A stretch of 64,000 nucleotides of DNA, taken from the IMG/VR virus record IMGVR_UViG_3300010160_000003, positions 1 to 64,000 of that record. One strand, 5' to 3'. The notes under the pieces are model-generated. The model was not told where the DNA came from, ran no database searches, and saw only the letters and a list, made by a program, of their open reading frames with translations. Shown here piece by piece: positions 12,827 through 26,600 of this stretch (positions are counted from its first letter, which is position 1; each line of letters starts with the position of its first letter). The stretch is from a virus. The translations under genes were made by a program, and so were the position numbers.

Positions 12827-12848
12827 AGTATAGCACCGACCACTGACA
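12827..12848 (-). promoter_or_regulatory. Class II promoter, minus strand
   Basis: TGTCAG-N10-TATACT on the minus strand, the same arrangement as ten plus-strand copies; drives the 58-aa gene operon. Confidence 0.75.
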
Positions 12849-13041
12849 TTTTTGCCCTATTCTCGGGCGTGTCGGTAAACTATTTTTGTGATGTTTATCA
12901 CATAAAATTTCCCCGGCCAATTTTGTCAAGTCAACACACCGATAAACCTCATATCGTTACGTAATCGTTATAATTCCCCATATAATGTGATGTACTTCAC
13001 AGTCGCAAATGTCCGTTTTATACCGATACTAGCCAGTAGAA

Positions 13042-13063
13042 TGTCAGACCCCCCTGCTATAAT
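13042..13063 (+). promoter_or_regulatory. Class II promoter
   Basis: TGTCAG (13042-13047), N10 with a C-tract, TATAAT (13058-13063). Precedes the operon at 13119. Confidence 0.8.
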
Positions 13064-13082
13064 ACTACTATAAAGAAAAACA

Positions 13083-13101
13083 AGCGGTAAAGAAATCCGC
13101 T
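13083..13101 (+). other. Leader hairpin, conserved loop
   Basis: AGCGG / CCGCT with 9-nt loop TAAAGAAAT between promoter and first gene. A second leader at 13875-13893 keeps loop and stem length but changes all outer pairs (TCAGG / CCTGA), so pairing is conserved by covariation. Confidence 0.65.
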
Positions 13102-13118
13102 AAAGAAAGGTCATAAAA

Positions 13119-13211
13119 ATGACACTACAAGAATATAAAGAAATGGTAGAGGCTCAGCGTAAAGCAAGCCTAGCCGTAGCCCTATCCGTACTAAAGAAAG
13201 AGGTCAAATAA
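13119..13211 (+). CDS. 30-residue helical peptide
   Basis: MTLQEYKEMVEAQRKASLAVALSVLKKEVK, one amphipathic helix. AAAGG ribosome site behind the class II promoter; stop overlaps next start (TAATG). Function unknown. Confidence 0.6.
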   Translation: MTLQEYKEMVEAQRKASLAVALSVLKKEVK

Positions 13212-13384
13212 TGACTATAAAAAATCTAATCCATGAGCATAATCCTATGCTCTCCGCTATCTCATCAGTAGGAGATGAGCAATTTACTTTCTGCCAAGAT
13301 TGCGAGCAGAATATCTCTCGCTACTATGGCGACCACGACCCTGAGCGGTTACCTATGTGGACAGATTGGTATTTAACTAAATGA
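13211..13384 (+). CDS. Small CxxC protein (57 aa), paralogue of the 13914 gene
   Basis: HEHNPMLSAISSVGDEQFTFCQDCEQNISRYY...MWTDWYLTK aligns along its length with the 60-aa protein at 13914 (EHNPKYSAIS, YTFCQNCENNI, QWSEWAVTK). The CxxC plus His residues suggest a zinc site. Two adjacent operons thus begin with duplicated genes. Role unknown. Confidence 0.7.
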   Translation: MTIKNLIHEHNPMLSAISSVGDEQFTFCQDCEQNISRYYGDHDPERLPMWTDWYLTK

Positions 13385-13521
13385 GTATTTTTAATTTTGA
13401 GTTATTCGTAACCGTTGAGGCAGATGATTTTGAGTCTGCACTTTCTTGGTTAAAAGTTTCACCCCTTGAAAATCAAATTGATTTTGAGGTTATTGACTAC
13501 ACAGAACTTAAAGGAGAATAA
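13381..13521 (+). CDS. Small acidic protein (46 aa)
   Basis: MSIFNFELFVTVEADDFESALSWLKVSPLEN...: beta strand followed by a helix with VEADDFESAL, similar in plan to the 54-aa protein at 16814 (FIDVEAESYDEAID). ATGA overlap with the gene before. Function unknown. Confidence 0.65.
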   Translation: MSIFNFELFVTVEADDFESALSWLKVSPLENQIDFEVIDYTELKGE

Positions 13522-13525
13522 ATAA

Positions 13526-13627
13526 ATGGAAAAAGATATTTTTGGATTTGCTGAAGCAATTGAATTAGATAATCTTAGCGATAAAGATTTAAAAATTGTT
13601 GAATTAATTTTTAAAGATTTTAAATAA
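13526..13627 (+). CDS. 33-residue acidic helical peptide
   Basis: MEKDIFGFAEAIELDNLSDKDLKIVELIFKDFK; AAGGAGAA ribosome site in the end of the preceding gene. Amphipathic helices, no motif. Confidence 0.55.
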   Translation: MEKDIFGFAEAIELDNLSDKDLKIVELIFKDFK

Positions 13628-13666
13628 CTAAAAAAGTTTTTTAGAGAATATCAAAACTCTAAAAAA
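13628..13666 (+). terminator. Two mutually exclusive hairpins after the operon
   Basis: CTAAAAAA/TTTTTTAG (13628-13644) and TTTTTTAGAG/CTCTAAAAAA (13637-13666, 10 perfect pairs) share the same T-run, so only one can form. Likely a 3' end or attenuator-like switch; it lies next to the GC block at 13670. Confidence 0.5.
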
Positions 13667-13913
13667 TAACCGGGCCGTTTTGTCAAATCGACACGCCGAT
13701 CTTTTTAAGATTGTTACGTAATTGTTATAATTTCCCCTAGTTATCCACAGAAGTTATCCACAGTTTTGAAAGTGTGACATAAAACACACGAAAAATCGTC
13801 TCACTATTTGGATTTACTGGCTAGTAATGTCATAAATGTCAGACCCCCCTGCTATAATTGCAGTATAAAGAAAATCAGGTACAGAAATCCTGAATTGAAA
13901 GGTAGGTCACTAA
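13667..13913. promoter_or_regulatory. Control region with two DnaA boxes and class II promoter
   Basis: GC block CCGGGCCG (13670-13677), TTACGTAA, two perfect TTATCCACA boxes (13741-13749, 13754-13762), a near-perfect TGTGA-N6-ACACA site (13773-13788), class II promoter 13837-13858 and covarying leader hairpin 13875-13893. No coding frame. Confidence 0.7.
13837..13858 (+). promoter_or_regulatory. Class II promoter
   Basis: TGTCAG-N10-TATAAT preceding the 60-aa gene at 13914; an extra AATGTCAT lies just upstream. Confidence 0.8.
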
Positions 13914-14096
13914 ATGACTACAATAAGTAAAACAACAGTATGCGTAGAGCATAACCCTAAATATTCTGCTATCTCAGAAGTATCAGATACACAATACACT
14001 TTCTGCCAAAATTGTGAAAACAATATAGACCGATTTTGGTTAGACTTTGGCTTAGAGCGTATGCCTCAATGGTCAGAGTGGGCGGTGACTAAATGA
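13914..14096 (+). CDS. Small CxxC protein (60 aa), paralogue of 13211 gene
   Basis: CVEHNPKYSAISEVSDTQYTFCQNCENNIDRFW...; aligned with the 57-aa protein of the previous operon. Probable zinc-binding. Ribosome site AAAGGTAGG. First gene of a six-gene coupled operon. Confidence 0.7.
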   Translation: MTTISKTTVCVEHNPKYSAISEVSDTQYTFCQNCENNIDRFWLDFGLERMPQWSEWAVTK

Positions 14097-14260
14097 GTAT
14101 TTGGACTAGGCTTGCTACTGTAAACGATTACCCTAAAGGCATGATGAACTTATGCCCTTGCGGTCAAGTGGTATTAGCCCCTGCGCTATACCATGAGGGG
14201 CAGTCATACATGACTAACCCTAATAAATGTAAAGAATTATTTGAAGGAGAAAATAAATGA
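14093..14260 (+). CDS. Small CxC protein (55 aa)
   Basis: MSIWTRLATVNDYPKGMMNLCPCGQVVLAPALYHEG...PNKCKELF: Cys21, Cys23 and a later Cys could bind metal. Coupled by ATGA overlaps on both sides. Function unknown. Confidence 0.65.
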   Translation: MSIWTRLATVNDYPKGMMNLCPCGQVVLAPALYHEGQSYMTNPNKCKELFEGENK

Positions 14261-14421
14261 GTACCTACGTACCAATTAAATCAGTATGCGGTGCAACTAG
14301 CACCAGCATAGATATCTATGACTTAGACCTTAACCCTCATGGGGTTATCTGTTGTGATAATTGCAAGTCTATCGTGTTGTGCCGTAAGGCATGGGACTTT
14401 CTATACAAGGGGGTTAAGTAA
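14257..14421 (+). CDS. Small zinc-ribbon protein (54 aa)
   Basis: ...NPHGVICCDNCKSIVLCRKAWDFLYKGVK: CCxxC plus CRK Cys suggests a zinc knuckle. ATGA overlap upstream, TAATG overlap downstream. Function unknown. Confidence 0.65.
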   Translation: MSTYVPIKSVCGATSTSIDIYDLDLNPHGVICCDNCKSIVLCRKAWDFLYKGVK

Positions 14422-14615
14422 TGGCTACAATTACAATAGGCGGATTAGGGCAAAAAATTGCTGTTTACTGTTTCGTGTGTTCTGGTAAAATGTCACACTG
14501 GGCGATTGCTTCAAATGGCGTTCGCTATGAGTGGCAGTGTAAAGATTGCGAAATCTCTATAAAATCAGATAGATTTGGAAATGCTAAATTACTAAAAGAA
14601 ATGGAGAATAAATAA
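14421..14615 (+). CDS. Small two-CxxC zinc protein (64 aa)
   Basis: IAVYCFVCSGKMSHWAIASNGVRYEWQCKDCEISIKSDR: two CxxC pairs about 22 residues apart, the classic zinc-ribbon spacing. Coupled to its neighbours. Could be a nucleic-acid or protein-binding adaptor; unproven. Confidence 0.7.
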   Translation: MATITIGGLGQKIAVYCFVCSGKMSHWAIASNGVRYEWQCKDCEISIKSDRFGNAKLLKEMENK

Positions 14616-14705
14616 ATGAAAACACTTAAAGAAAAGTTAGATGCAGTAGCGTTAGAGTTAGAGCCAGTACTATGGGATTTACTAAATGAAATTGAGGAGA
14701 AATAA
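14616..14705 (+). CDS. 29-residue acidic helical peptide
   Basis: MKTLKEKLDAVALELEPVLWDLLNEIEEK, a single amphipathic helix; start directly follows the TAA of the preceding gene. Function unknown. Confidence 0.55.
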   Translation: MKTLKEKLDAVALELEPVLWDLLNEIEEK

Positions 14706-14707
14706 AA

Positions 14708-14803
14708 ATGGATCTATCTTTTTTTTATAGTGGAAATGCACTTTTGTTTTTATCTCTTGGGTTAATTGCTTATGGTTTTATTCTCTTTGCAAAGGGGGAA
14801 TAA
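14708..14803 (+). CDS. 31-residue membrane peptide
   Basis: MDLSFFYSGNALLFLSLGLIAYGFILFAKGE: one membrane helix with short tails. GAGGAGA ribosome site lies in the previous gene. Small hydrophobic phage peptides may alter host membranes; role unknown. Confidence 0.55.
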   Translation: MDLSFFYSGNALLFLSLGLIAYGFILFAKGE

Positions 14804-14950
14804 AATTTGCCCGGCCCGTTTTTTGACTGGTCAAACCTTTTACGTACGATGTGATTTTTCTCACATGCGACACGCCGTGTTTAGATTTGACTTTTTGACT
14901 TTTTTTTGCTATACTTGCAGTATAACAATTAAATAAGAACAGACAAGGCA

Positions 14951-15001
14951 ATGAGCCTAGCAAATAAGTGTGATGAGTATCACAATGAGCCTAGCAAATA
15001 A
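14951..15001 (+). CDS. Possible 16-residue leader peptide
   Basis: MSLANKCDEYHNEPSK after an AAGG ribosome site and behind the promoter at 14887-14915. The frame is built on two copies of an 18-base direct repeat with a CRP-like palindrome between them, so it may be regulatory DNA rather than a gene. Confidence 0.25.
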   Translation: MSLANKCDEYHNEPSK

Positions 15002-15012
15002 ATGCCCTAAAA

Positions 15013-15034
15013 TGTCAGCCCTCAATGGTAAGAT
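15013..15034 (+). promoter_or_regulatory. Class II promoter
   Basis: TGTCAG-N10-TAAGAT before the 61-aa gene at 15068. Confidence 0.65.
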
Positions 15035-15067
15035 AGTCTTATCACTAAAACGAAAGGAAGTCACTAA

Positions 15068-15253
15068 ATGACTTACACTATAAAACTAGAAACCTACTCA
15101 GGTTCAATAAAAAATATCCCCCTATCCACTAAAGGACAGGTTGCAGATTTTATCTCTAACTATCCTAATGCGTTACCCGTTGGCGTGTCCGTAAAAATAT
15201 CCTGCGACTTGCTCGGTATTCGCGGAACACTACGCGGAAAGGCAATTCTCTAA
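15068..15253 (+). CDS. Small hypothetical protein (61 aa)
   Basis: MTYTIKLETYSGSIKNIPLSTKGQVADFISNYPNALPVGVSVKIS...: beta-rich start, AAAGGAAG ribosome site. The stop overlaps the next start (TAATG). No family recognised. Confidence 0.65.
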   Translation: MTYTIKLETYSGSIKNIPLSTKGQVADFISNYPNALPVGVSVKISCDLLGIRGTLRGKAIL

Positions 15254-15402
15254 TGATAAATTCAGTAATGACAATACCTTGCGAGGAGTGCCACTCAACA
15301 GGTTTAATTTTTTTTGGCGATAACGATAATTTTGATACCGAAACTTGCGAGTGCGATTTTGGTATTGAACAAGACTTATATTTTTTCAACAACAACAACT
15401 AA
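15253..15402 (+). CDS. Small CxxC/CxC protein (49 aa)
   Basis: MINSVMTIPCEECHSTGLIFFGDNDNFDTETCECDFGIEQD...: CEECHSTG is a CxxC knuckle like those of DnaJ-type zinc turns, with CEC later. Ends in an Asn run (NNNN). Coupled to the 61-aa gene. Confidence 0.6.
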   Translation: MINSVMTIPCEECHSTGLIFFGDNDNFDTETCECDFGIEQDLYFFNNNN

Positions 15403-15421
15403 CGAATAGGAAATAAAAAAA

Positions 15422-15631
15422 ATGACAGTATCAATTAAACACAATCTCGCTTTTGTAACTGAAGTAGACGAAACTCATCCAGTAGGTATTCGCCTGCTTG
15501 CACTCCCTGATGAAATGCGAATCCTTATGCTTGAATCAATGCTAAAGGAATTCCTTATCCCAGCACTTGGGCCAGTAATTGATAAAATTAACGAAAATGG
15601 CTCATACGCAATTCTTAAGGTAGTGGAATAA
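15422..15631 (+). CDS. Hypothetical protein (69 aa)
   Basis: HNLAFVTEVDETHPVGIRLLALPDEMRILMLESMLKEFLIPALGPVIDKINENG...; amphipathic helices, acidic. GAATAGGAA ribosome site. Stop immediately followed by the next ATG. No motif. Confidence 0.65.
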   Translation: MTVSIKHNLAFVTEVDETHPVGIRLLALPDEMRILMLESMLKEFLIPALGPVIDKINENGSYAILKVVE

Positions 15632-15814
15632 ATGATGACACGCAAGGACTATGTAGCAACTGCTGAAATTCTAAATGGATTCAAAGATATAATCTTAGAT
15701 GAAATTACTTTTGCTGATTTGGTAGATGAATTTTCTCTAATGTTTGAAAGTGATAATCCAAAATTCTCACCAACAATTTTTGAAACCGCTTGCTATAAAA
15801 ATGCAGATGAATAA
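15632..15814 (+). CDS. Hypothetical protein (60 aa)
   Basis: MMTRKDYVATAEILNGFKDIILDEITFADLVDEFSLMFESDNPKFSPTIFETAC...: the RKDYVATAEIL...F..MF..DNP.F....F..AC pattern is common in small phage proteins across tailed phages; function unknown. Last gene before the stem-loop terminator. Confidence 0.7.
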   Translation: MMTRKDYVATAEILNGFKDIILDEITFADLVDEFSLMFESDNPKFSPTIFETACYKNADE

Positions 15815-15829
15815 ATAAAATAAAAGACC

Positions 15830-15862
15830 TGAGCAAGTCTGTGCAAAACTGCTCACTTTTTT
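15830..15862 (+). terminator. Conserved CCTGAGCA stem-loop terminator, copy 1
   Basis: TGAGCA (15830-15835) pairs with TGCTCA (15850-15855), followed by CTTTTTT. One of five related stem-loops (others near 19077, 19578, 20803, 22041) with AAAC before the right arm. Confidence 0.75.
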
Positions 15863-16070
15863 ATTGCAAAAAAACCCGGCCCGTTTTCCACAGGTTTATC
15901 CACAGGCAGGTTTAAGATACGCTTACGACACGCCCGAGATCTTGTGAGATTAATCACACCGAAAATGTATCCACATTGTGAGATTTATCCTCTACGATTT
16001 GAAAATGTCACCCGTATCTGATAGGATTACATAGTAATAATAAATTAACTAAAGAAAGAGGTTGCCCCCT
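15863..16070. promoter_or_regulatory. Control region with DnaA box and class II promoter
   Basis: GC block CCCGGCCCG (15875-15883), TTATCCACA (15896-15904), TGTGA-N6-TCACA (15943-15958), a half site, and class II promoter TGTCAC-N10-TAGGAT (16006-16027) with TTGAAA at -35. Confidence 0.65.
16006..16027 (+). promoter_or_regulatory. Class II promoter (variant)
   Basis: TGTCAC-N10-TAGGAT, with TTGAAA 17 bp before the -10. Leads the eight-gene operon from 16071. Confidence 0.6.
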
Positions 16071-16298
16071 ATGGCTACTAAAGCATATTCTATCGTAGAT
16101 TTACTTGAAGGTAAATACTATCGCTCACACTCCCGTTATATTGACGGACTAATCACTTACGCAGAAAAGCGTGACTCAGTTTACTATGGCGAAGGCTTTG
16201 AGGCTTACCTTGTAAAAGTACGCCCTACCTATAAGGGATTCCCTGATTTGCCCAAAGCAGATTTTTATGCTACGATTGCAGTAAAGGTTGGAGAATAA
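16071..16298 (+). CDS. Hypothetical protein (75 aa)
   Basis: MATKAYSIVDLLEGKYYRSHSRYIDGLITYAEKRDSVYYGEGFEAYLVKVRPTYKGF...: beta-rich, basic. The ATG at 16071 is chosen over an in-frame TTG at 16062 because AAAGAGG lies at the right distance and CCCCC-T-ATG is shared with other class II leaders. No family recognised. Confidence 0.7.
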   Translation: MATKAYSIVDLLEGKYYRSHSRYIDGLITYAEKRDSVYYGEGFEAYLVKVRPTYKGFPDLPKADFYATIAVKVGE

Positions 16299-16300
16299 TA

Positions 16301-16411
16301 ATGGACTTCTATGATGACTACTATGAAACAGATATGATACGCCCAGATGTAAAAGATTGCTATTGCAAACTTCACTCAATTTGTACTAACTGCATGAAGG
16401 GATATAACTAA
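16301..16411 (+). CDS. Small Cys-rich peptide (36 aa)
   Basis: MDFYDDYYETDMIRPDVKDCYCKLHSICTNCMKGYN: CxC, His, CxxC, enough for one zinc. Stop overlaps the next start. Resembles a zinc finger after an acidic Tyr-rich tail. Confidence 0.6.
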   Translation: MDFYDDYYETDMIRPDVKDCYCKLHSICTNCMKGYN

Positions 16412-16599
16412 TGGGAAACTTATTTGATGAGATTGGCACTTGCTACACTTGCTATGATGAAGGACTAATAATGAAAGATGAGTTTATTACAGATTTTTGC
16501 AACGATTGTGAAAAAGGCTCAGTCCTTGCTAATGAGTATGCTATATGGTATGCTGAAAATGAAATGAACGAATACACTAAAGAAATGGAAAATGCATAA
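16411..16599 (+). CDS. Small zinc-ribbon protein (62 aa)
   Basis: GTCYTCYDEGLIMKDEFITDFCNDCEKGSVLANEYA...: two CxxC pairs about 20 residues apart, then an acidic helix. TAATG coupling on both ends. Function unknown. Confidence 0.7.
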   Translation: MGNLFDEIGTCYTCYDEGLIMKDEFITDFCNDCEKGSVLANEYAIWYAENEMNEYTKEMENA

Positions 16600-16814
16600 T
16601 GGAATATCTATACGCAATAACAGTATCCTATGACGGCAACACACCTCATTGGACAGGTCGCTACTCAGACGCACTAACCGCCGTTGATGAGTTTAATAAG
16701 CATATTGATTGGGGATTTGCAGATGAATACGCAACAGTTAATTTATCTGAGCCAAGTGGAAAGATGCACACACGCACTTTCTATCGTGAAGGCAGAAGGG
16801 TTGTGACTAAGTAA
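16599..16814 (+). CDS. Hypothetical protein (71 aa)
   Basis: MEYLYAITVSYDGNTPHWTGRYSDALTAVDEFNKHIDWGFADEYATVNLSEPSGKMHTRTFYREG...: alpha-beta pattern with SDALTAVDEF helix. Such proteins recur in actinophage early regions; function unknown. Confidence 0.65.
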   Translation: MEYLYAITVSYDGNTPHWTGRYSDALTAVDEFNKHIDWGFADEYATVNLSEPSGKMHTRTFYREGRRVVTK

Positions 16815-16978
16815 TGGAAATTTTTGAGTTTAATACTTTCATAGATGTCGAGGCAGAGTCGTATGATGAAGCCATTGATGTCTTTCAATTCCAATTAAAG
16901 TATGGAATAAATAAAGATAATGTCTATGTCGCAGACATAAAGCAATTAACTAACAACAACGAAAGCGTAGAGGTATAA
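16814..16978 (+). CDS. Small acidic protein (54 aa)
   Basis: MEIFEFNTFIDVEAESYDEAIDVFQFQLKYGINKDNVYVADIKQL...: beta-helix-beta plan similar to the 46-aa protein at 13381 (VEADDFESAL), suggesting a small paralogous family. TAATG overlap upstream. Confidence 0.65.
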   Translation: MEIFEFNTFIDVEAESYDEAIDVFQFQLKYGINKDNVYVADIKQLTNNNESVEV

Positions 16979-16981
16979 ATA

Positions 16982-17269
16982 ATGGGAAGCGTAACAGCAA
17001 TTGGATTAGCAGATAGCGTATTAGATTTAGAAACTCAATTACTCTATCACTTGAAGGGTAATCACTATCCACCAGTACCAGCAGAAATGGTAACACCATG
17101 CATTGAAGCCATTGATGCAGCCTATGATGAAGATTTTAACCGCATGATTGACATGCCAAAGGTCGGTGACTTTCAGATTCTCTATAAAGACTCAACGCAA
17201 GCACCAGCGTGGGCAATTATTGAACAACACCACTTGGATTGGTTTATCACACCAACAGAGGAGGACTAA
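16982..17269 (+). CDS. Conserved phage protein (95 aa)
   Basis: DSVLDLETQLLYHLKGNHYPPVPAEMVTPCIEAIDAAYDEDFNRMIDMP...: the LxGNHYPPVPxxMVxPCIEAIDA motif is frequent in actinobacteriophage proteins of unknown function. Coupled to the 24-aa gene. Confidence 0.7.
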   Translation: MGSVTAIGLADSVLDLETQLLYHLKGNHYPPVPAEMVTPCIEAIDAAYDEDFNRMIDMPKVGDFQILYKDSTQAPAWAIIEQHHLDWFITPTEED

Positions 17270-17343
17270 TGACAGATTTTTATATTCCCCACTCAAAGTA
17301 TTGTGATTGCAACGAATGCCTAACTATTGAGGAGAATGAATAA
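17269..17343 (+). CDS. 24-residue Cys-containing peptide
   Basis: MTDFYIPHSKYCDCNECLTIEENE: CxCxxC with His8. ATG overlaps the TAA before it and its TAA abuts the next ATG, so translation is likely despite its size. Confidence 0.5.
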   Translation: MTDFYIPHSKYCDCNECLTIEENE

Positions 17344-17577
17344 ATGTCTGATACAATAAAAAACGTGGAACTTAGATTTGCTGATAACTTAACACCCTCT
17401 CAACTTATGCCAGGAGATCTAGTCAAGGTTGATGGTGAGTGTGTAACTATTGAAACCCTTACAGAAAATAAACACGGGTTTAATATTTATGCTAGAGATG
17501 ATTTTAACGAAGAGGTTCATTTTTATTTATTTGATGATGAAACTATTGAGTGGTATGTATTTTTTGAAGAAGAATAA
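17344..17577 (+). CDS. Small acidic beta protein (77 aa)
   Basis: ...LTPSQLMPGDLVKVDGECVTIETLTENKHGFNIYARDDFNEEVHFYLFDDETIEWYVFFEEE: the PGDLVKVDGE..V motif resembles intein-hint-like or SH3-like small barrels. Ends the operon. Function unknown. Confidence 0.65.
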   Translation: MSDTIKNVELRFADNLTPSQLMPGDLVKVDGECVTIETLTENKHGFNIYARDDFNEEVHFYLFDDETIEWYVFFEEE

Positions 17578-17658
17578 TCACTAAACTAATTTTTAATCCT
17601 TCCCATCACAAAAAACCGCCCGGCACATTTTTTATAGAATGTCAAGTATTTACGTAAT

Positions 17659-17687
17659 TTGACATTTTTCCCCATGTATGCTAAGAT
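17659..17687 (+). promoter_or_regulatory. Class I (leaderless) promoter
   Basis: TTGACA-N17-TAAGAT, then six bases to ATG 17694. GC block GCCCGGCAC at 17618-17626 and TTTACGTAA lie upstream. Confidence 0.8.
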
Positions 17688-17693
17688 TAATTT

Positions 17694-17855
17694 ATGAAAA
17701 CAAGAAAAAACCCCGAGGAATTGCGTAGACTTATGGAATTACGCCGTAGTAATGCAGCCTCAGCCGTACCCTCAAAGAAAAACTATTCTAGAAAAAATAA
17801 ATGTCAGTCCCTTATGCTAGAATTAAAGAAAGAAAGCGAGTCCCCTAATGACTAA
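17694..17855 (+). CDS. Small basic protein (53 aa), leaderless
   Basis: MKTRKNPEELRRLMELRRSNAASAVPSKKNYSRKNK...: Arg/Lys-rich helix, possibly nucleic-acid binding. No ribosome site but ideal leaderless spacing. Its 3' third contains the class II promoter of the next gene and its end overlaps that gene by eight bases, so the reading may be partly incidental. Confidence 0.5.
   Translation: MKTRKNPEELRRLMELRRSNAASAVPSKKNYSRKNKCQSLMLELKKESESPND
17802..17823 (+). promoter_or_regulatory. Class II promoter inside the 53-aa ORF
   Basis: TGTCAG-N10-TAGAAT upstream of the Gp88-like gene at 17848. Confidence 0.7.
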
Positions 17856-18570
17856 ACTACTAAGAAGCAAAGATAGAAAAGTAACTAATGCCGTATCCCC
17901 TAATGGTAAGACTGCCACTATTGCTAATACTTTTGGTCTTCCCGCAGGAAAAGCATATTCATGTCCTGGAGCCACAACAGTATGCGAAAGTGTATGCTAT
18001 GCAGGAAAGTTAGAAAAAATATTCCCTAGTGTTAAAGTTAATCTATTACACAATTGGGATTTACTAAAAAATGCAGACGGTGTTACTATGACAACACTAC
18101 TTAATGAAATGATAGATGAGTTTATTGTTGATTGTGAAAAGAAAAATGCAGAAAAGTTATTCCGTATCCACTGGGACGGAGATTTTTTCAATGACACTTA
18201 TGCAATGGCATGGCGTGAGGTTATTCTTAATTATCCTACCGTTCAATTCTGGGTATACACTAGAGTTTCATCTGCGGCTCTTATTCTAAAGGGAATACAA
18301 AACCTATCTCTCTATTTTTCTGCAGATAGCGAAAATATCAAAACTGCCGTTGACTTAAAATTAAATAATGGTATTCGCATGGCGTACCTTGCTAAGACAT
18401 TCGCAATAGGACAAGCAGACATAAAAGAAATGATAGGTAAGCCTAGTGCTAAGTGTCCTGAGAATAATAAACAAATTCCGCTAATCTCAACCAAAGGTTC
18501 GGCTTGCGTTTCTTGCTCATTGTGTGTATACTCTAAGAGTGACATAATTTTTTCTAGTAGTAAGAAGTGA
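17848..18570 (+). CDS. Gene product 88-family protein (240 aa)
   Basis: The start (KVTNAVSPNGKTATIANTFGLPAGKAYSCPGATTVCESVCYAGK) matches the mycobacteriophage Gp88 family: an N-terminal Cys cluster CPGATxxCxxxCYAGK, a central HWDGDFFN segment and a C-terminal CxxCxLC cluster (ACVSCSLCVYSKSD). The Cys clusters suggest metal or Fe-S binding. Biochemical function of the family is unknown to me. Own class II promoter and CCCC-ATG leader. Confidence 0.8.
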   Translation: MTKLLRSKDRKVTNAVSPNGKTATIANTFGLPAGKAYSCPGATTVCESVCYAGKLEKIFPSVKVNLLHNWDLLKNADGVTMTTLLNEMIDEFIVDCEKKNAEKLFRIHWDGDFFNDTYAMAWREVILNYPTVQFWVYTRVSSAALILKGIQNLSLYFSADSENIKTAVDLKLNNGIRMAYLAKTFAIGQADIKEMIGKPSAKCPENNKQIPLISTKGSACVSCSLCVYSKSDIIFSSSKK

Positions 18571-18576
18571 GATAAA

Positions 18577-18642
18577 ATGGAAGGCTATAAAATATTTTTA
18601 TTTTTTTTATTATTTTTATTTATTTTATTTTTAAACCAGTGA
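18577..18642 (+). CDS. 21-residue hydrophobic membrane peptide
   Basis: MEGYKIFLFFLLFLFILFLNQ: nearly pure Phe/Leu/Ile helix, long enough to span a membrane. Six bases after the Gp88-like stop with GAAGTGAG upstream. The coding DNA is a T-run, so chance cannot be excluded. Confidence 0.4.
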   Translation: MEGYKIFLFFLLFLFILFLNQ

Positions 18643-18895
18643 AAACTGGCCCGGCACAAAAATATTTAAAAGTCAAATTTTAACCTTTAAGAAGATCAAT
18701 TTATTTCCCCGATTACGTATGAGATTAATCACACCCAAAAACCTCACTAGGATTTGCTTTTATGACATTTTTATGTCATACTTAGGGTATAAACAAATAA
18801 CAATTCCAAATAGTGAGATTTTTAGGTATTCAACTTGAAAATGTCAGTAGGAAATGTTATACTTAAAATATCAACTAAACAGAAAAGAGAAAATC
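18643..18895. promoter_or_regulatory. Control region before the 54-aa gene
   Basis: Hairpin CCAGT-GAAA-ACTGG (18636-18649), GC block GGCCCGGCAC (18648-18657), near-perfect CRP-like site (18718-18733), then class II promoter TGTCAG-N10-TATACT (18842-18863) with TTGAAA at -35. Confidence 0.65.
18842..18863 (+). promoter_or_regulatory. Class II promoter
   Basis: TGTCAG-N10-TATACT with TTGAAA 17 bp before the -10; drives the 54-aa gene at 18896. Confidence 0.75.
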
Positions 18896-19060
18896 ATGTC
18901 AGTAGCAACCGCAACTTATCGTGTAGGAGATACCTATACAACACAGAAGTCAAAAGTAACAGGAGTCATTGAGGAAATCACAACTCTTGCAAATGGTAAT
19001 GTTCGTGTTAAGTTAAATGTAGAAGGCAACACTCGCTACACAACTTGGACAGCAAAGTAA
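18896..19060 (+). CDS. Small beta protein (54 aa)
   Basis: MSVATATYRVGDTYTTQKSKVTGVIEEITTLANGNVRVKLNVEGNTRYTTWTAK: SH3-like beta strands. Start at 18896 follows AAAAGAGAA; a longer frame from 18854 lacks a ribosome site and begins in the promoter. Repeats of this type often bind nucleic acids; unproven. Confidence 0.7.
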   Translation: MSVATATYRVGDTYTTQKSKVTGVIEEITTLANGNVRVKLNVEGNTRYTTWTAK

Positions 19061-19076
19061 TCTAATTACTTATTCC

Positions 19077-19099
19077 TGAGTATGAAATAAAACTACTCA
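19077..19099 (+). other. CCTGAGTA stem-loop, copy 2
   Basis: TGAGTA pairs with TACTCA; compared with other copies the C-G pair has become T-A on both arms, which is covariation. No T-run follows, so it may be a processing or stability element. Confidence 0.65.
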
Positions 19100-19141
19100 C
19101 GCAATACCCCCTAATAATCCACCAAAGAAAAGAGAAAACAA

Positions 19142-19564
19142 ATGGCTAGAGCAAAAGCAATAAATGTAAAAATCCCAACAGTACGAGTAATCGCAGGACT
19201 AGAGGAAGCACTCGCTACCCTAGAAGCAGACTACGCAACACAATCAGCAAAAGAAGCAAAGTACGAAATTGCTCGCAAGGCTTGGCAAAAAGAAGTTCAG
19301 GACTTTGCTATCGCAAACATCAGCAAGGCAGAAAACTTCCGCACCAACTTCCGTTCTTGGTCAAACAATCTCAACATTGACTTTGACTTGACAGTATTAG
19401 AAAAGGACTTGCCTAAAGAGCCTGAGCAGGACTACGAAGTAATCCATCAGCACACTTATCGTGAGTCAAAGAAAGAAATCACAAACGCAATTCGTCTGTT
19501 AAAAATGACAGATGAGGAAACAGTAAGCACAAGCACTTACAATGCTATTGCTCAGTATCTCTAA
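19142..19564 (+). CDS. Hypothetical helical protein (140 aa)
   Basis: MARAKAINVKIPTVRVIAGLEEALATLEADYATQSAKEAKYEIARKAWQKEVQDFA...: long charged helices (residues ~20-60) then HQHTYRESKKEITNAIRLLKMTDEETVSTSTYN. No membrane or metal motif. AAAAGAGAAAA ribosome region. Bracketed by stem-loops 2 and 3. Function unknown. Confidence 0.65.
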   Translation: MARAKAINVKIPTVRVIAGLEEALATLEADYATQSAKEAKYEIARKAWQKEVQDFAIANISKAENFRTNFRSWSNNLNIDFDLTVLEKDLPKEPEQDYEVIHQHTYRESKKEITNAIRLLKMTDEETVSTSTYNAIAQYL

Positions 19565-19577
19565 ATAATCCAACACC

Positions 19578-19600
19578 TGAGTATGTGTATAAACTGCTCA
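19578..19600 (+). other. CCTGAGTA stem-loop, copy 3
   Basis: TGAGTA with TGCTCA (one G-T pair), AAAC before the right arm; 14 bases after the stop of the 140-aa gene. Confidence 0.6.
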
Positions 19601-19611
19601 CACAATTAAAT

Positions 19612-19718
19612 GATGGTCTGTCCGTTCCGACGGCATAGGTAAGAGTGTGACCCTTTAACCAAAGGGTATTGAGTCATAACGGCACACCGCCATCCACCCC
19701 TCCCCAGGATCCAGGGAA
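19612..19718 (+). ncRNA. Candidate structured RNA
   Basis: GC-richer than its surroundings. CCGT-TCCG-ACGG (19622-19633), ACCCTTT-AACC-AAAGGGT (7 perfect pairs, 19650-19667) enclosed by GTGTG/CACAC (19645-19649, 19683-19687), and TCCC/GGGA near 19701-19716. No coding frame. Strand follows neighbours; function unknown. Confidence 0.4.
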
Positions 19719-19727
19719 ATTGACAAA

Positions 19728-19749
19728 TGTCAGACCCTCATAGTATAAT
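19728..19749 (+). promoter_or_regulatory. Class II promoter
   Basis: TGTCAG-N10-TATAAT with TTGACA 18 bp before the -10. Confidence 0.8.
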
Positions 19750-19777
19750 TAATATAACCAACAAGAAGGAGCCCCAA

Positions 19778-20275
19778 ATGGGATTAGATATGTACCTTAG
19801 TGCAAGAAAGCACTTAGAAAAAATCAACTGGAAAGCACTACAAGGAAATGATGAACTATCTTATTCATCTCCTGAAGCCGTATATCCTAAGTTTAATGAC
19901 CTAATGGAAATCACACAACTATCAGATGTTGCTACAGATATTTATGGAGCAGAGGTATCAGTTACTTGTGCCTACTGGCGCAAGGCTAATCAGATACACA
20001 ACTGGTTCGTTACAAATGTTCAAGGCGATAACGATAACTGCGGAGAATACTATGTATCACAAGATAAACTAACAGAATTAATGGTTTTATGCGAACACGC
20101 ACTTGAAAATAAAGACCCAGCACTACTACCCCCACAAGAAGGATTTTTCTTTGGGGGCACAGATATTGATGAGTGGTATTGGAATCAACTAAAGAATACT
20201 ATTACTCAGTTAAAGCGTATCTTTGCTTTCCCTGAAATTAATAATCTCTCATTCTACTATAACTCATCTTGGTAA
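19778..20275 (+). CDS. Conserved phage protein of the MGLDMYL type (165 aa)
   Basis: MGLDMYLSARKHLEK..., AYWRKANQIHNWFVTNVQGDNDNCGEYYVSQDKLTELMVLCEHAL and GFFFGGTDIDEWYW are hallmarks of a family often found in phages and bacteria, sometimes mislabelled phosphoglycerate kinase. Start at 19778 follows AAGGAG-CCCC; a frame from 19727 begins in the promoter. No proven activity. Confidence 0.8.
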   Translation: MGLDMYLSARKHLEKINWKALQGNDELSYSSPEAVYPKFNDLMEITQLSDVATDIYGAEVSVTCAYWRKANQIHNWFVTNVQGDNDNCGEYYVSQDKLTELMVLCEHALENKDPALLPPQEGFFFGGTDIDEWYWNQLKNTITQLKRIFAFPEINNLSFYYNSSW

Positions 20276-20283
20276 TTGACAAT

Positions 20284-20305
20284 TGTCAGTACCCTGCGAT
20301 ATACT
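20284..20305 (+). promoter_or_regulatory. Class II promoter
   Basis: TGTCAG-N10-TATACT with TTGACA 18 bp before the -10. Confidence 0.8.
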
Positions 20306-20337
20306 TAAACTAACCAACTAACAGAAAGAGGCCCCCA

Positions 20338-20751
20338 ATGGAGCAAACAGTAATACCAGCAACAACGCAAGAATTTCTACAATCTCAGGTATCAATTAAA
20401 GATGAGCGTATTGCTCAACTAGAAGAGCATATCCAAAAACTAACACAACGTTCATATACAGATTCTGCAGAGCGCAACCGTATGGTTGAGGGTATGCAAG
20501 AGTGGACACTTAATGAACTAGAAAATGAAGACATAACAGAAGAGCAAGCAGAAGCAATTGCTGAAATTATGGGCTTTGAACTTACAAAAGAGTTTGAGGT
20601 TGAAGTTACTGTTCTTTATTCTGTTACAGTTAATGCACGTAATGAGGAGCAGGCTACTAATGCAATTCACGATATTGATTTTGATACCGTTGACTATAAC
20701 TCAGACTCAATTCAATACTTGTCATCATCAATTGATAGAGTAGATATTTAG
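20338..20751 (+). CDS. Coiled-coil protein (137 aa)
   Basis: Residues ~15-60 form a coiled coil (SIKDERIAQLEEHIQKLTQRSYTDSAERNRM); the C-terminal half is beta-rich (FEVEVTVLYSVTVNARNEEQATNAIHDI), a small ferredoxin-like plan also seen in the 46- and 54-aa proteins. AAAGAGG-CCCCC-AATG leader. Function unknown. Confidence 0.65.
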   Translation: MEQTVIPATTQEFLQSQVSIKDERIAQLEEHIQKLTQRSYTDSAERNRMVEGMQEWTLNELENEDITEEQAEAIAEIMGFELTKEFEVEVTVLYSVTVNARNEEQATNAIHDIDFDTVDYNSDSIQYLSSSIDRVDI

Positions 20752-20785
20752 TAGGGGGCTACTAATAGACATGCCGAATGTCTAT
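20749..20785 (+). other. Two tandem hairpins starting at the stop codon
   Basis: TAGTAG-GGGG-CTACTA (20749-20764, including the TAG stop) and ATAGACAT-GCCGA-ATGTCTAT (20765-20785, 8 perfect pairs), directly followed by the terminator stem. A compact three-hairpin 3' UTR. Confidence 0.6.
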
Positions 20786-20800
20786 AAACTAGGCAAGGGA

Positions 20801-20837
20801 CCTAAGCATTGTCCACGTAAACTGCTTATTTTTTTTA
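20801..20837 (+). terminator. CCTAAGCA stem-loop terminator, copy 4
   Basis: TAAGCA (20803-20808) pairs with TGCTTA (20823-20828), then TTTTTTTTTA. Both arms differ from copy 1 at the same pair (G-C to A-T), supporting RNA function. Confidence 0.75.
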
Positions 20838-21012
20838 TTTATTCAGTTGCATAAAATGTGGGCCGGGGCAGTTGTGATCAATATCACATTGTGAATTACG
20901 ACACAGTTACGATATGCCCGAATTGCCCCATGTCTGCTTATACGATTTGACTTTGTCAGCCCTGTCTGCTAAACTTAGTATAACAATCAAACAGAAAAGG
21001 AAAAATAAACTC
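20838..21012. promoter_or_regulatory. Control region of the DUF932 gene
   Basis: GC block GGGCCGGGGC (20860-20869), TGTGA-N6-TCACA (20873-20888) and class II promoter TGTCAG-N10-TAAACT (20954-20975) with TTGACT at -35. Confidence 0.7.
20954..20975 (+). promoter_or_regulatory. Class II promoter
   Basis: TGTCAG-N10-TAAACT with TTGACT 17 bp before the -10; drives the DUF932 gene at 21013. Confidence 0.75.
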
Positions 21013-22029
21013 ATGGCACATGAACTAGAAACACAAAATGGAGTAGCCTCTTTCGCTTCATTTCGTGAACCTGCTTGGCATGGATTGGGTACTGTATTCA
21101 CAGAGGAAAAATCTACATCAGAAATGTTGGCTTCTGCCAATCTTAATGGTTGGAACGTTCGTCTAGAGGATTTAGTGACCCCTTCACATTTATCAAGCGA
21201 CAAAGAATATCAGTATGTCGTTCGCACTAACCCTACTGATAATTCTCAAACCGATATTCTTGGTGTTGTCGGTGAGCGATACCATGTAATGCAAAATGAG
21301 GATTTATTCTCATTTGGAGATAATATCCTAGACGGCGGTGGTCGTTGGGAAACTGCTGGCTCAATCAAGGGTGGTCGTGTTGTATTTGGTGCGTTAGCAC
21401 TAGAGCGTGAAACTATCCTAGACCCTAATGGTGTTGCTGATAAGGTAAAAACTTATTTACTTATTAACACTTCCCATGACGGTTCTATTGCAATTCAAGC
21501 AAGCATAACACCCGTTCGTGTTGTGTGTGCTAATACTCTCAATATGGCACTCAACACTACAAAAAAGAAAAATGGTATCAAGCAATCTTTCAAGATTCGC
21601 CATACGCAAACCGCACAAGGTAAAGTGCAAGTGGCTCGTGAAACTCTTGGGCTTGCTAATGCATACATGGATTCATTTGACATCATGGCAAAAACTTTAT
21701 TTGCTACTGAGGTCAATGCTAAAATGTTCAATGAGATTATTCTCGCTTCATATCCTAAGCCTGAAAAAGATGCTAAGGGTGCAATTAAAAAGTGGGAAAA
21801 TAAAGTTGATACTATCAACGACATTTACACAGGCGAGTTTAACGGCATGATTGCTGGTAATGCTTGGGGTGCGTTCAATGCACTAACTGAGCGACTAGAC
21901 TGGTATCGTTCTGCTCGTGGTGGTTCTAACGAGTCAATTCTTGCAAGTGCAAGTGGATTTGACCCTGCAATTAACGCAGAGAAAAATCGTTTGCTCAAAG
22001 TTGTAAAAAATGTAATGCAACTCGCATAA
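21013..22029 (+). CDS. DUF932 phage/plasmid-like protein (338 aa)
   Basis: MAHELETQNGVASFASFREPAWHGLGTVF at the start, ILGVVGERYHVMQNEDLFSFGDNIL, and HDGSIAIQASITPVRVVCANTLNMAL are signature segments of DUF932 (TIGR03299 type). Family members occur beside mobile-element and early phage genes; some are thought to act in DNA metabolism or anti-defence, but activity is unproven. I chose ATG 21013 (AAAAGGAAA upstream) over an earlier frame inside the promoter. Single-gene operon ending at stem-loop 5 and tRNA-Asp. Confidence 0.85.
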   Translation: MAHELETQNGVASFASFREPAWHGLGTVFTEEKSTSEMLASANLNGWNVRLEDLVTPSHLSSDKEYQYVVRTNPTDNSQTDILGVVGERYHVMQNEDLFSFGDNILDGGGRWETAGSIKGGRVVFGALALERETILDPNGVADKVKTYLLINTSHDGSIAIQASITPVRVVCANTLNMALNTTKKKNGIKQSFKIRHTQTAQGKVQVARETLGLANAYMDSFDIMAKTLFATEVNAKMFNEIILASYPKPEKDAKGAIKKWENKVDTINDIYTGEFNGMIAGNAWGAFNALTERLDWYRSARGGSNESILASASGFDPAINAEKNRLLKVVKNVMQLA

Positions 22030-22040
22030 CAAAATAATCC

Positions 22041-22062
22041 TGAGCATGATTGAAAACTGCTC
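22041..22062 (+). other. CCTGAGCA stem-loop, copy 5, abutting tRNA-Asp
   Basis: GAGCA pairs with TGCTC; a direct repeat GCATGATTG spans the stem-loop and the tRNA start. It may separate the DUF932 message from the tRNA. Confidence 0.6.
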
Positions 22063-22067
22063 CGCAT

Positions 22068-22144
22068 GATTGCGTAGAATAGTTGGTTAATTCGCTAGCC
22101 TGTCACGCTAGAGATCGTGGGTTCAAGTCCCATCGCAATCGCCA
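22068..22144 (+). tRNA. tRNA-Asp (anticodon GTC), CCA encoded
   Basis: Acceptor GATTGCG/CGCAATC (7 pairs), D arm GAAT..ATTC, anticodon arm CTAGC-CTGTCAC-GCTAG, T arm GTGGG-TTCAAGT-CCCAT, discriminator G and encoded CCA. All arms pair. Reads GAC/GAU. Confidence 0.95.
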
Positions 22145-22287
22145 ATAAAATGGGCCGGGTCCGTAACATTTTGTTATAAAACCAATTACGATAGATGACA
22201 TTTTTCCCCAAACCTTATTAAGAAGAACTTGACATTTCCCCCAAACCATGCAATAATTAATACATAACCCACTAACAAAGGAATTTC
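22145..22287. promoter_or_regulatory. Control region of the 140-aa gene
   Basis: GC block GGGCCGGG (22152-22159), AACATTTTGTTAT, TTACGA, TTTTTCCCC, and promoter TTGACA-N17-AATAAT (22229-22257). Ribosome site AAAGGAA. Confidence 0.65.
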
Positions 22288-22710
22288 ATGAGAGAACGCA
22301 CAACAGGATATATAGGTAATATTTTAGACGGAAAGAAACTAGCCAAGATTGCCAATAAAATTTACAAAGCGCAATATAACAGTGTTAGTGAATGTACAAT
22401 AGATAACTTACTACTAATTGAACTTGAAGAGAAGAATGTTTTTGGAGATTCAAAGTATGCCGTTGTATGTACAGAGGGTGTTGGCTGGGAGCAAGATAGT
22501 TATGGTTGTCTTGAAATCCCGACAAATGTTGGTGCTATGGGTAACTGGAATGGCCGTGTATTCATATCAGTAGAGGTAATTGGACAATGTTTAACAGGAC
22601 AAACACAGGATATCTCAAAATACATTCGTACCTTTGGAGATAGATTAGATAATAACTGTTACCTATGGCAATGTAAAATGTCAGTCCTACCTAGTACAAT
22701 ATCAGTATGA
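22288..22710 (+). CDS. Hypothetical protein (140 aa)
   Basis: MRERTTGYIGNILDGKKLAKIANKIYKAQYNSVSECTIDNLLLIELEEKN...: helical N-terminal third, then beta-rich GVGWEQDSYGCLEIPTNVGAMGNWNGRV. Its last codons contain a class II promoter (22679-22700). Not recognised. Confidence 0.65.
   Translation: MRERTTGYIGNILDGKKLAKIANKIYKAQYNSVSECTIDNLLLIELEEKNVFGDSKYAVVCTEGVGWEQDSYGCLEIPTNVGAMGNWNGRVFISVEVIGQCLTGQTQDISKYIRTFGDRLDNNCYLWQCKMSVLPSTISV
22679..22700 (+). promoter_or_regulatory. Class II element at leaderless distance
   Basis: TGTCAG-N10-TACAAT inside the end of the 140-aa gene, six bases before ATG 22707: it combines both promoter classes. Confidence 0.6.
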
Positions 22711-22868: not shown

Positions 22869-23062
22869 TGTGGACTACCTATAGTTATGTTTGTACTAAC
22901 TGTGATGCATTGATCCAGGTCACTACTCAAGTTACCCCTGAAGAAAATGCATCCTGTACTTGTATGCGTGGGGCCTGGGTAACTCGTACTGCCATGGAAC
23001 CTAATGTGAGCAAGGTCACACCTCCAAAACTTGTAAAAATCAACACCAACCCGTATAATTAA
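22868..23062 (+). CDS. Small zinc-ribbon protein (64 aa)
   Basis: MWTTYSYVCTNCDALIQVTTQVTPEENASCTCMRGAWVTRTAMEPN: CxxC and CxC about 20 apart, a short zinc ribbon. The coding DNA contains a perfect TGTGA-N6-TCACA (23005-23020) just upstream of the next leaderless promoter. Confidence 0.7.
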   Translation: MWTTYSYVCTNCDALIQVTTQVTPEENASCTCMRGAWVTRTAMEPNVSKVTPPKLVKINTNPYN

Positions 23063-23450: not shown

Positions 23451-23656
23451 CACCACAAGAAATGTTAGAACAGATGATTGACAAGGCTACTTTAGATTTC
23501 TTGGAGATAACCAAGGAAGAAGAAGACGGCGACTTTGGAGATGCAATGCTATCTATGGAACGCACAGAGGCTAATGGTTTTCTAGAAGGTTTGTCAGTGG
23601 CATACCATATAATCTTTGATAAGGTATATACCTCACCAGTAGGATTGGATAACTAA
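23447..23656 (+). CDS. Helical hypothetical protein (69 aa)
   Basis: MTPQEMLEQMIDKATLDFLEITKEEEDGDFGDAMLSMERTEANGFLEGLSVAYHIIFDKVY...; ends with a FxxGLxxAYxxIxD helix like the neighbours. Coupled translation on both sides. Unknown function. Confidence 0.65.
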   Translation: MTPQEMLEQMIDKATLDFLEITKEEEDGDFGDAMLSMERTEANGFLEGLSVAYHIIFDKVYTSPVGLDN

Positions 23657-26454: not shown

Positions 26455-26600
26455 TTATCCTGTGGATAACTATCCTAAACCTGTGGATAACTCTATCAAA
26501 CCACGCCTTCCTCCTGTGGATAACTTCATCAAACCTCTGCATAAACCTGTGGATAACTATCAAACATATGTAATAGATATGTTCTATAACCTGTGGATAA
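26455..26600. other. Array of five perfect DnaA boxes
   Basis: TGTGGATAA at 26461, 26482, 26515, 26548 and 26592, all in one direction; the first lies in TTATCC-TGT-GGATAA. Spacings 21, 33, 33 and 44 bp put the boxes on nearly one helix face. TTATCCACA is the conserved bacterial DnaA box. Confidence 0.85.

What the first reader, a model, noticed from the sequence alone, without database searches (positions are those of the whole stretch)
12827..22700. Eleven copies of an unusual promoter element TGTCAG-N10-TATAAT
Exact spacing of ten bases between TGTCAG and a -10-like hexamer occurs at 13042, 13837, 15013, 16006 (TGTCAC), 17802, 18842, 19728, 20284, 20954, 22679 and on the minus strand at 12843. 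The interval is C-rich. In several copies a TTGACA-like -35 sits directly before it, so TGTCAG lies in the spacer, where a regulator or a phage-modified polymerase could bind. It marks the start of nearly every early operon, comparable to start-associated sequences of cluster K mycobacteriophages but with a different sequence.
Basis: partly seen in the sequence, partly recalled or inferred. Interest (0 to 1): 0.85.

Follow-up and report, generated by a model that had tools for sequence, protein, structure and literature searches.

The report
Composite early promoters of actinophages
A family of viruses of actinobacteria puts the same unusual start signal, often paired at an exact distance with a docking site for a common kind of bacterial activator protein, in front of about a dozen small early genes; what reads the new part of the signal is unknown.

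Summary
All 11 reported TGTCAS-N10-TAnnnT sites exist; all 12 in the 100-kb virus record lie at 12.8-23.6 kb (64-kb window shuffled: mean 1.7, largest 6 of 300). In 80 related viral loci TGTCAG-N10-TAnnnT occurs 712 times (4-194 at other spacings), with consensus AAATGTCAG-n-CC/GG-TGnTATAAT: an extended -10 promoter, mostly with a weak -35. It marks one clade of actinophages; the Streptomyces relatives checked lack it.

The main new result was not in the finding: CRP/GlxR-type palindromes (TGTGA-N6-TCACA) stand upstream of 215 of 497 non-redundant sites, centred mostly 26.5, 36.5, 46.5 or 56.5 bases before TGTCAG. Such 10-base phasing is that of class I CRP activation; ordinary -35/-10 promoters of these phages show it too. 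No CRP-type HTH (PF13545) or sigma region 2 was found in 11 clade records.

Best reading: host RNA polymerase and host CRP drive these promoters, and an unidentified factor, somewhat more likely phage-encoded, reads TGTCAG at about -28 to -23 in place of the -35. Promoter nature and phasing are well supported by sequence; reader, timing and use are inferred. The cluster K comparison is not supported. New variant of a known kind.

The parts
12827..12848 (-). TGTCAG-N10-TATACT promoter, leftward (GG subclass, no -35)
   Evidence: CRP centre to -10: 62.5
12887..12902 (.). CRP-type palindrome TGTGATGTTTATCACA
   Evidence: in phase with the leftward promoter
12986..13001 (.). CRP-type palindrome TGTGATGTACTTCACA
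   Evidence: 64.5 to the -10 at 13058, 2 bases off the common phase
13042..13063 (+). TGTCAG-N10-TATAAT promoter with TGC extended -10
13773..13788 (.). CRP-type palindrome, 1 mismatch
   Evidence: 72.5 to -10
13837..13858 (+). TGTCAG-N10-TATAAT promoter
14850..14865 (.). CRP-type palindrome before a canonical TTGACT-N17-TATACT promoter with -10 at 14910
   Evidence: 52.5 to -10
14969..14984 (.). CRP-type palindrome TGTGATGAGTATCACA
   Evidence: 52.5 to the -10 at 15029
15013..15034 (+). TGTCAG-N10-TAAGAT promoter
15943..15958 (.). CRP-type palindrome TGTGAGATTAATCACA
   Evidence: 71.5 to the -10 at 16022
16006..16027 (+). TGTCAC-N10-TAGGAT promoter (variant), -35 TTGAAA N17
17802..17823 (+). 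TGTCAG-N10-TAGAAT promoter before the GP88-family gene 17848-18570
   Evidence: inside small ORF 17694-17855
18842..18863 (+). TGTCAG-N10-TATACT promoter, -35 TTGAAA N17; 1-mismatch CRP site at 18718 lies 132.5 from -10
19728..19749 (+). TGTCAG-N10-TATAAT promoter with TTGACA N18, no CRP site
20284..20305 (+). TGTCAG-N10-TATACT promoter with TTGACA N18, no CRP site
20873..20905 (.). Two CRP-type palindromes (20873 perfect, 20890 one mismatch)
   Evidence: 89.5 and 72.5 to the -10 at 20970
20954..20975 (+). TGTCAG-N10-TAAACT promoter before the DUF932 gene 21013-22029, -35 TTGACT N17
22679..22700 (+). TGTCAG-N10-TACAAT promoter, leaderless start at 22707
23005..23020 (.). CRP-type palindrome before the TATAAT at 23054 (gene 23066)
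   Evidence: 41.5 to -10
23592..23613 (+). Twelfth TGTCAG-N10-TATAAT match, inside ORF 23447-23656; undecided

Best explanation
TGTCAG is a fixed part of a composite early promoter of one actinophage clade: AAATGTCAG (about -31 to -23 if the -10 hexamer is -12 to -7), 10 bases, then an extended -10 (TGnTATAAT). Shown by sequence: spacing, strand, conservation, place shortly before small early-region genes, and phased CRP-type palindromes upstream of a good part of the sites. Inferred: host sigma-A polymerase opens the promoter through the extended -10; where a palindrome is present, a host CRP/GlxR protein helps from the same face of the helix (class I, about -53, -64, -74, -84), so early expression would follow host cAMP or whatever that protein senses; a sequence-specific factor, unidentified, binds TGTCAG just below the -35 position and takes over the -35's role, as MotA or PhoB do on other promoters. 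I hold this factor somewhat more likely phage-encoded (about 0.6 to 0.4 for a host factor). If phage-made, the TGTCAG promoters are delayed-early and the canonical phased promoters (for example -10 at 14910) come first.
For: Spacing: TGTCAG-N10-TAnnnT 712 times in 80 loci, other spacings from 3 to 25 give 4-194; TGTCAC, TGTCAA and TGTCAT have no comparable N10 peak (11, 33, 63). Logo of 183 non-redundant sites: AAA before, CC or GG after, TG at the extended -10, no strong -35. In promoter clusters (not deduplicated) TGTCAG 1661 against CTGACA 56 and 60-211 for five permuted words on the same strand; 1398 of 1661 have the N10 -10. Start codon leaderless or 10-59 nt after the -10 in 362 of 407 sites against 154 of 917 TGTCAG without that -10. 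CRP palindromes, at most one mismatch: 215 of 497 sites within 24-62 bases; 280 hits in 150 upstream bases against 7 in reversed upstream sequence; peaks 26.5/36.5/46.5/56.5. The same fine phasing in 95 pairs from 96 further loci, which were however picked by a composite pattern with a gap of 26-52. From CRP palindromes to any extended -10 downstream, TGTCAG not being used in the search: 90 of 174 carry exactly TGTCAG 16 bases before the -10 (some of the loci had been fetched by the motif). Canonical promoters show the same positions relative to -10. No PF13545 and no PF04542 in 11 clade records. Clade restriction.
Against: No start site, binding or expression data. No reader protein identified: two conserved early proteins were folded and neither matches a known regulator. 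88 of 407 sites have a -35 of at least 5 of 6, so some may be ordinary promoters to which TGTCAG adds something else. 282 of 497 sites lack a CRP palindrome within 24-62 bases, and a minor group of palindromes sits half a turn off, at 41.5-42.5 before TGTCAG. Lesser peaks of TGTCAG-TAnnnT at N5, N15 and N16 (107, 93, 194) were not explained. Host genomes could not be searched properly, so a host promoter class is not excluded. The host is inferred, not shown.
Confidence: 0.5

Rival explanations
1. Host promoter class: the host's own polymerase, or a host factor bound to it, reads TGTCAG, and the phages copy a strong host promoter type together with host CRP sites.
For: Early promoters must work with what the cell has; the CRP palindromes look like host sites and no phage PF13545 was found; two Streptomyces relatives, in another host, lack both elements but for single matches.
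Against: 119 of 119 loci found by the motif alone show at least 20% coverage by proteins of this phage family; in a second scan 93 of 96 new loci do, two more have the same kind of promoter and GC content, and one (L431) looks unrelated and has a single site. A strict form found 2 places in one genome for each of 84,980 prokaryote species, neither actinobacterial, but only 3 of 720 phage sites fit that form, so this is weak.
Confidence: 0.3
2. Operator of a phage repressor: TGTCAG is bound by a repressor that shuts the early promoters off by covering the spacer.
For: Lies within the expected polymerase footprint at many early promoters; cluster A mycobacteriophage stoperators contain TGTCAAG (recalled).
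Against: N10 spacing and fixed strand over hundreds of sites and mostly weak -35; an operator would tolerate shifts and inversion. Single, non-palindromic half site.
Confidence: 0.12
3. No reader: TGTCAG with the tract after it shapes the spacer DNA, and the promoters are plain extended -10 promoters.
For: Spacer sequence can affect promoter strength without known specific contacts (PMC2613000, passages read).
Against: Six specified bases plus AAA and a CC-or-GG step across a deep clade are more than a bend would need.
Confidence: 0.08

Closest known systems
Class I (and extended -10) CRP-dependent promoters, e.g. lac and galP1 of E. coli; CRP of M. tuberculosis
   Same: TGTGA-N6-TCACA palindrome, centres about 10 bases apart in phase, weak or absent -35, extended -10 (consensus and galP1 in PMC4117774 and PMC2613000, passages)
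   Different: Centres fall about 3 bases further upstream than -61.5/-71.5 (recalled) if the -10 is numbered as in lac; an extra TGTCAG in the spacer; on phage DNA
T4 middle promoters (MotA box, sigma appropriation; recalled)
   Same: A short asymmetric box near -30 replacing the -35, fixed distance to an extended -10, many copies per phage
   Different: Different sequence, somewhat nearer the -10; no MotA or AsiA family seen in what was scanned; the CRP part has no T4 counterpart that I know of
Pho box promoters (PhoB; recalled)
   Same: The promoter-proximal TGTCA half site sits 10 bases before the -10 and replaces the -35
   Different: Only one half site here, no conserved repeat 11 bases upstream; TGTCAG, not TGTCAC/T
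Early promoters of Streptomyces phage Samisti12 (Stanwilliamsviridae)
   Same: By eye, a promoter-like -10 before most small early genes
   Different: TAGACA-N18-TAnnnT, 9 in the record (other records 0-4 at N18; BillNye 0 at N18 and 5 at N17); one TGTCAG-N10 match and no perfect CRP palindrome in the whole record

Membership tests
CRP class I activated promoters | TGTGA-N6-TCACA palindrome upstream | tested here: met
   215 of 497 sites with at most 1 mismatch at 24-62 bases; 280 hits against 7 in the control. The other 282 sites do not meet it
CRP class I activated promoters | Helical phasing relative to the promoter | tested here: met
   Peaks 10 bases apart, seen again in 96 further loci picked by a 26-52 gap; a minor group is half a turn off
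CRP class I activated promoters | A CRP protein binds and activates | not testable with these tools
   No phage PF13545 found; host genome not available
T4 MotA-type middle promoters | MotA box sequence (TTTGCTTTA, recalled) | tested here: not met
   Box is AAATGTCAG
T4 MotA-type middle promoters | MotA and AsiA homologues | tested here: inconclusive
   None among the 10 Pfam families hit by 44 early-region proteins; the list for 32 further proteins was cut at 25 of 31 families; not all genes were scanned
PhoB/OmpR-type box | Two direct 11-base repeats before the -10 | tested here: not met
   No conserved second half site upstream in 183 sites
Alternative sigma factor promoter | Phage sigma factor and -35/-10 spacing of 15-19 | tested here: not met
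   Spacing 10; no PF04542 match in 13 records
WhiB-dependent promoters | A WhiB confined to phages with the element | tested here: not met
   WhiB in 12 of 13 records including both Streptomyces phages that lack the element
Start-associated sequence of cluster K phages | Conserved 13-mer just before start codons (recalled) | tested here: not met
   Element lies upstream of a -10; start codon mostly 20-39 nt after the -10 (278 of 344 with a leader)
Cluster A stoperators | Copies at free distance from promoters (recalled) | tested here: not met
   1398 of 1661 sense copies at N10 from a -10

The most novel reading that the evidence does not exclude
A large clade of uncultured actinophages encodes an unknown specificity factor that binds TGTCAG at -28 to -23, a stretch that no sigma domain I know of reads, and redirects host polymerase from -35 recognition to a phage regulon of about 4-20 early promoters per record, which at the same time listen to the host's cAMP/CRP-type signal through helically phased sites.
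Probability: 0.35. Interest if true: 0.8.

Novelty: new variant of a known kind. Interest (0 to 1): 0.62.

Why it matters
It gives, from sequence alone, a promoter grammar for a deep clade of uncultured actinophages and predicts two testable things: that host CRP/GlxR activity sets early phage expression, and that a separate factor reads TGTCAG. A new -35-replacing element would extend the short list of ways in which phages redirect sigma-A polymerase in actinobacteria.

Tried and rejected
Rejected: (1) TGTCAG as the -35 of an alternative sigma (spacing 10; no PF04542). (2) Presence of a phage WhiB as the explanation of the element. (3) A second Pho-type half site. (4) Tandem switch in which an ordinary TTGAC[AT] promoter precedes each TGTCAG promoter: 12 of 391, against 7 (downstream) and 9 (opposite strand). 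(5) CRP sites exclusive of a -35: 44 of the 88 sites with a good -35 are CRP-positive, so not exclusive. (6) CRP acting only through the TGTCAG reader: canonical promoters show the same positions. (7) Two conserved early proteins as reader: the 54-aa protein 18896-19060 is predicted as a small SH3/Tudor-like barrel (pLDDT 80), best match E 0.22; the 140-aa protein 19142-19564 has best match E 0.028 at probability 0.44; neither excluded nor supported. (8) Literature, all as listings: TGTCAG with bacteriophage, promoter and extended, 0 papers; CRP binding site, early promoter, bacteriophage, cAMP-CRP, 18 papers with 3 of 4 terms, 12 listed, none on phage early promoters of this kind by title; cAMP receptor protein, phage promoter, class I, actinophage, 318 papers with 2 of 4 terms, 15 listed; mycobacteriophage promoters with CRP, 10 listed; Stanwilliamsviridae, 6 papers, none on transcription by title and abstract start; freshwater actinobacteria phages, 27 papers, 15 listed. 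PMC10202952 was read whole: isolated Planktophila phages carry whiB and a sigma-70 gene; promoters are not treated.

Rows dropped before counts: 90 of 497 sites with poor -10 or unusual bases after TGTCAG; 23 of 407 that were neither CRP-positive at 24-62 nor free of CRP within 140, rows were thinned from 93 to 33 by dropping similar unlabelled ones, 48 of the 80 loci were searched (mostly short contigs and one duplicate left out), 39 of those 48 (left out: eight shorter contigs and G033, a 133-kb Streptomyces-type record with 4 scattered matches). The site sets include loci that had been fetched by the motif itself; the 80 loci had not. Some of the 96 loci come from contigs that earlier loci also cover.


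Full report
What was checked. The window is bases 1-64000 of a 100,390-base virus record. The 11 reported sites are all present with the exact ten-base interval. TGTCAS-N10-TAnnnT occurs 12 times in the whole record, all between 12.8 and 23.6 kb; shuffles of the window give a mean of 1.7 and a largest value of 6 in 300. TATAAT with two mismatches allowed gives a weaker excess over the whole window, 32 against 20.2, with 0 of 100 shuffles reaching 32.

The phage. Its DNA polymerase is of the DnaE type and is 52-54% identical to those of Streptomyces phages Samisti12 and BillNye, family Stanwilliamsviridae. Genes in the region include a GP88-family and a DUF932 gene, both also found in cultured phages, mostly of actinobacteria. 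A WhiB gene lies at 40705-40878. That the host is an actinobacterium follows from these relatives and WhiB; that the clade lives in fresh water is my guess, since no call gave habitats.

Conservation of the element. In 80 viral loci fetched by the GP88 protein TGTCAG-N10-TAnnnT occurs 712 times; other spacings from 3 to 25 give 4-194, the larger ones being N16 (194), N5 (107) and N15 (93), which I did not resolve. TGTCAC, TGTCAA and TGTCAT give 11, 33 and 63 at N10, no comparable peak. The logo of 183 non-redundant sites reads AAAA-TGTCAG-T/A-CC or GG-C, then TG-n-TATAAT-TA. Within promoter clusters TGTCAG is found 1661 times on the sense strand, its complement 56 times and five permuted words 60-211 times, redundancy not removed; 1398 of the 1661 have the -10 at N10. 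Of 407 well-formed non-redundant sites 376 are followed by a start codon within 160 nt, 278 of them 20-39 nt after the -10 box.

Distribution. 27 of 27 long contigs, chosen because they held a close GP88 relative or the motif, have 4-20 copies, with 0-3 in the reversed-pattern control; 24 of 27 hold the polymerase, 51-97% identical. BillNye has 0 and Samisti12 has 1. Of 48 contigs fetched by polymerase, 5 have clusters (7-17 copies) and the rest 0-4. In 39 of these the DUF932 gene of the early region was sought and found in 7: 4 have clusters and 3, related to the Streptomyces phages in polymerase, have 0-1; one cluster contig (G075) gave no DUF932 match. Most of the others may therefore be fragments without the early region. 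In a polymerase tree of 33 rows the 16 labelled with clusters and the 6 labelled without (one of these, G033, has 4 scattered matches) lie on opposite sides of a branch with full support; the tree is unrooted, so gain and loss cannot be told apart. Loci found by the motif alone: 119 of 119 show at least 20% coverage by proteins of the clade and the two Streptomyces phages. In a second scan with the composite pattern 93 of 96 new loci do; two of the three others (L370, L403) have the same kind of promoter and GC content, and the last (L431, 54% GC, one site) looks like chance.

The CRP-type palindromes. Perfect TGTGA-N6-TCACA occurs 7 times in the record, all at 12.9-23.0 kb, and 3-10 times in each of 10 relatives; four other spacings average 0-0.5; Samisti12 has 0 and BillNye 1. 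Among 497 non-redundant TGTCAG sites, 215 (43%) have such a palindrome with at most one mismatch 24-62 bases upstream; 280 hits in 150 upstream bases against 7 in reversed upstream sequence; the centres cluster at 26.5, 36.5, 46.5 and 56.5 bases before TGTCAG (9, 32, 52 and 26 hits, neighbours one base off adding to each), with a minor group at 41.5-42.5 (9). A further 96 loci, selected with a gap of 26-52, give the same fine pattern: 36.5 (21), 46.5 (14), 56.5 (8), 41.5-42.5 (10) of 95 pairs. The test was turned round: from the palindromes (623 non-redundant, both orientations), any extended -10 downstream was taken without asking for TGTCAG; 90 of 174 have exactly TGTCAG at the slot 16 bases before it, and 64 of 104 at the phased distances. 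Ordinary promoters, TTG[AG][CA][AT]-N16-18-TAnRMT without TGTCA at that slot (658), have 54 perfect palindromes within 150 bases, most often 52.5 (12), 41.5 (8) and 62.5 (5) bases before the -10. Hence the palindrome-binding protein appears to address polymerase and not only the TGTCAG reader. In the window, the distances from palindrome centre to -10 are 62.5, 64.5, 72.5 (one mismatch), 52.5, 71.5, 72.5 (one mismatch; a perfect site there is at 89.5), and 52.5 and 41.5 for two promoters without TGTCAG; 17802, 19728, 20284 and 22679 have none, and 18842 has only a distant one-mismatch site.

Mechanism. The -35 is weak: at most 3 of 6 in 242 of 407, at least 5 of 6 in 88 of 407; in CRP-positive sites a TTGAAA-like hexamer at N17 is faintly visible. 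[quoted passage not shown] CRP of M. tuberculosis binds a palindrome like that of E. coli (PMC4117774, passages). I therefore infer that host polymerase uses the extended -10, that host CRP assists from phased sites, and that a separate protein reads TGTCAG. In 11 clade records no PF13545 (HTH_Crp_2) or PF04542 (sigma region 2) match was found; other CRP or sigma models were not tried. Several small early genes are conserved in all or most of 10 relatives and not found in the two Streptomyces phages and are candidates; two were folded without result.

Verdict. A real and well-defined promoter element, part of a composite early promoter with phased CRP-type sites at about two fifths of the sites; a new variant of a known kind. 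No paper on it was found in the searches listed, which cover only open-licence PubMed Central and were seen as listings.

Noticed in passing
window 26461-26600: Five copies of TGTGGATAA (DnaA-box-like) within 140 bases; similar groups in two relatives, six copies mostly 21 bases apart in G014 and three in G012. Perhaps a replication origin.
   Followed up: partly
window 13741-13762 and 15884-15904: Pairs of DnaA-box-like TTATCCACA (one TTTTCCACA) inside early promoter regions; TCCACAG occurs upstream of 30 of 185 CRP-positive and 3 of 199 CRP-negative sites.
   Followed up: partly
window 13083-13101 and 13875-13893: Leader hairpin with fixed core GGTAnAGAAATCC and changing stems: 39 of 45 distinct copies pair 3 of 3, with six stem types; 42 of 45 lie less than 90 nt after a TGTCAG promoter. 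No Rfam match there at gathering score.
   Followed up: partly
window 12866-12873, 13690-13697, 14869-14876, 15928-15935: GACACGCC element (or its complement; places read by eye), enriched upstream of CRP-positive sites, often about 25 (complement 18) bases before TGTCAG.
   Followed up: partly
window near 15830, 19070, 19575, 22040: Recurring CCTGAGCATG...AAACTGCTC-like words after genes, able to form a hairpin (by eye); CTGA-N10-AAAC is enriched upstream of CRP-negative sites. Terminator or processing site?
   Followed up: no
window 17682, 22695, 23054, 25624, 26846, 27597, 29522, 31855: Leaderless-looking genes: -10 hexamer 6 nt before ATG, several with a TTGACA-like -35.
   Followed up: partly
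window 12912, 14810, 15875, 20860, 22152, 25529: CCCGGCC/GGGCCGG words between early genes; Samisti12 has GGGCCCGGACA between its early genes.
   Followed up: no
window 32231-38518: Sugar gene cluster: glycosyltransferases, NAD-dependent epimerase, FkbM methyltransferase.
   Followed up: no
window 18896-19060: 54-aa protein with relatives in 159 of 253 loci searched (many of which do not cover the early region), predicted small SH3/Tudor-like barrel, no PHROG match below E 0.06.
   Followed up: partly
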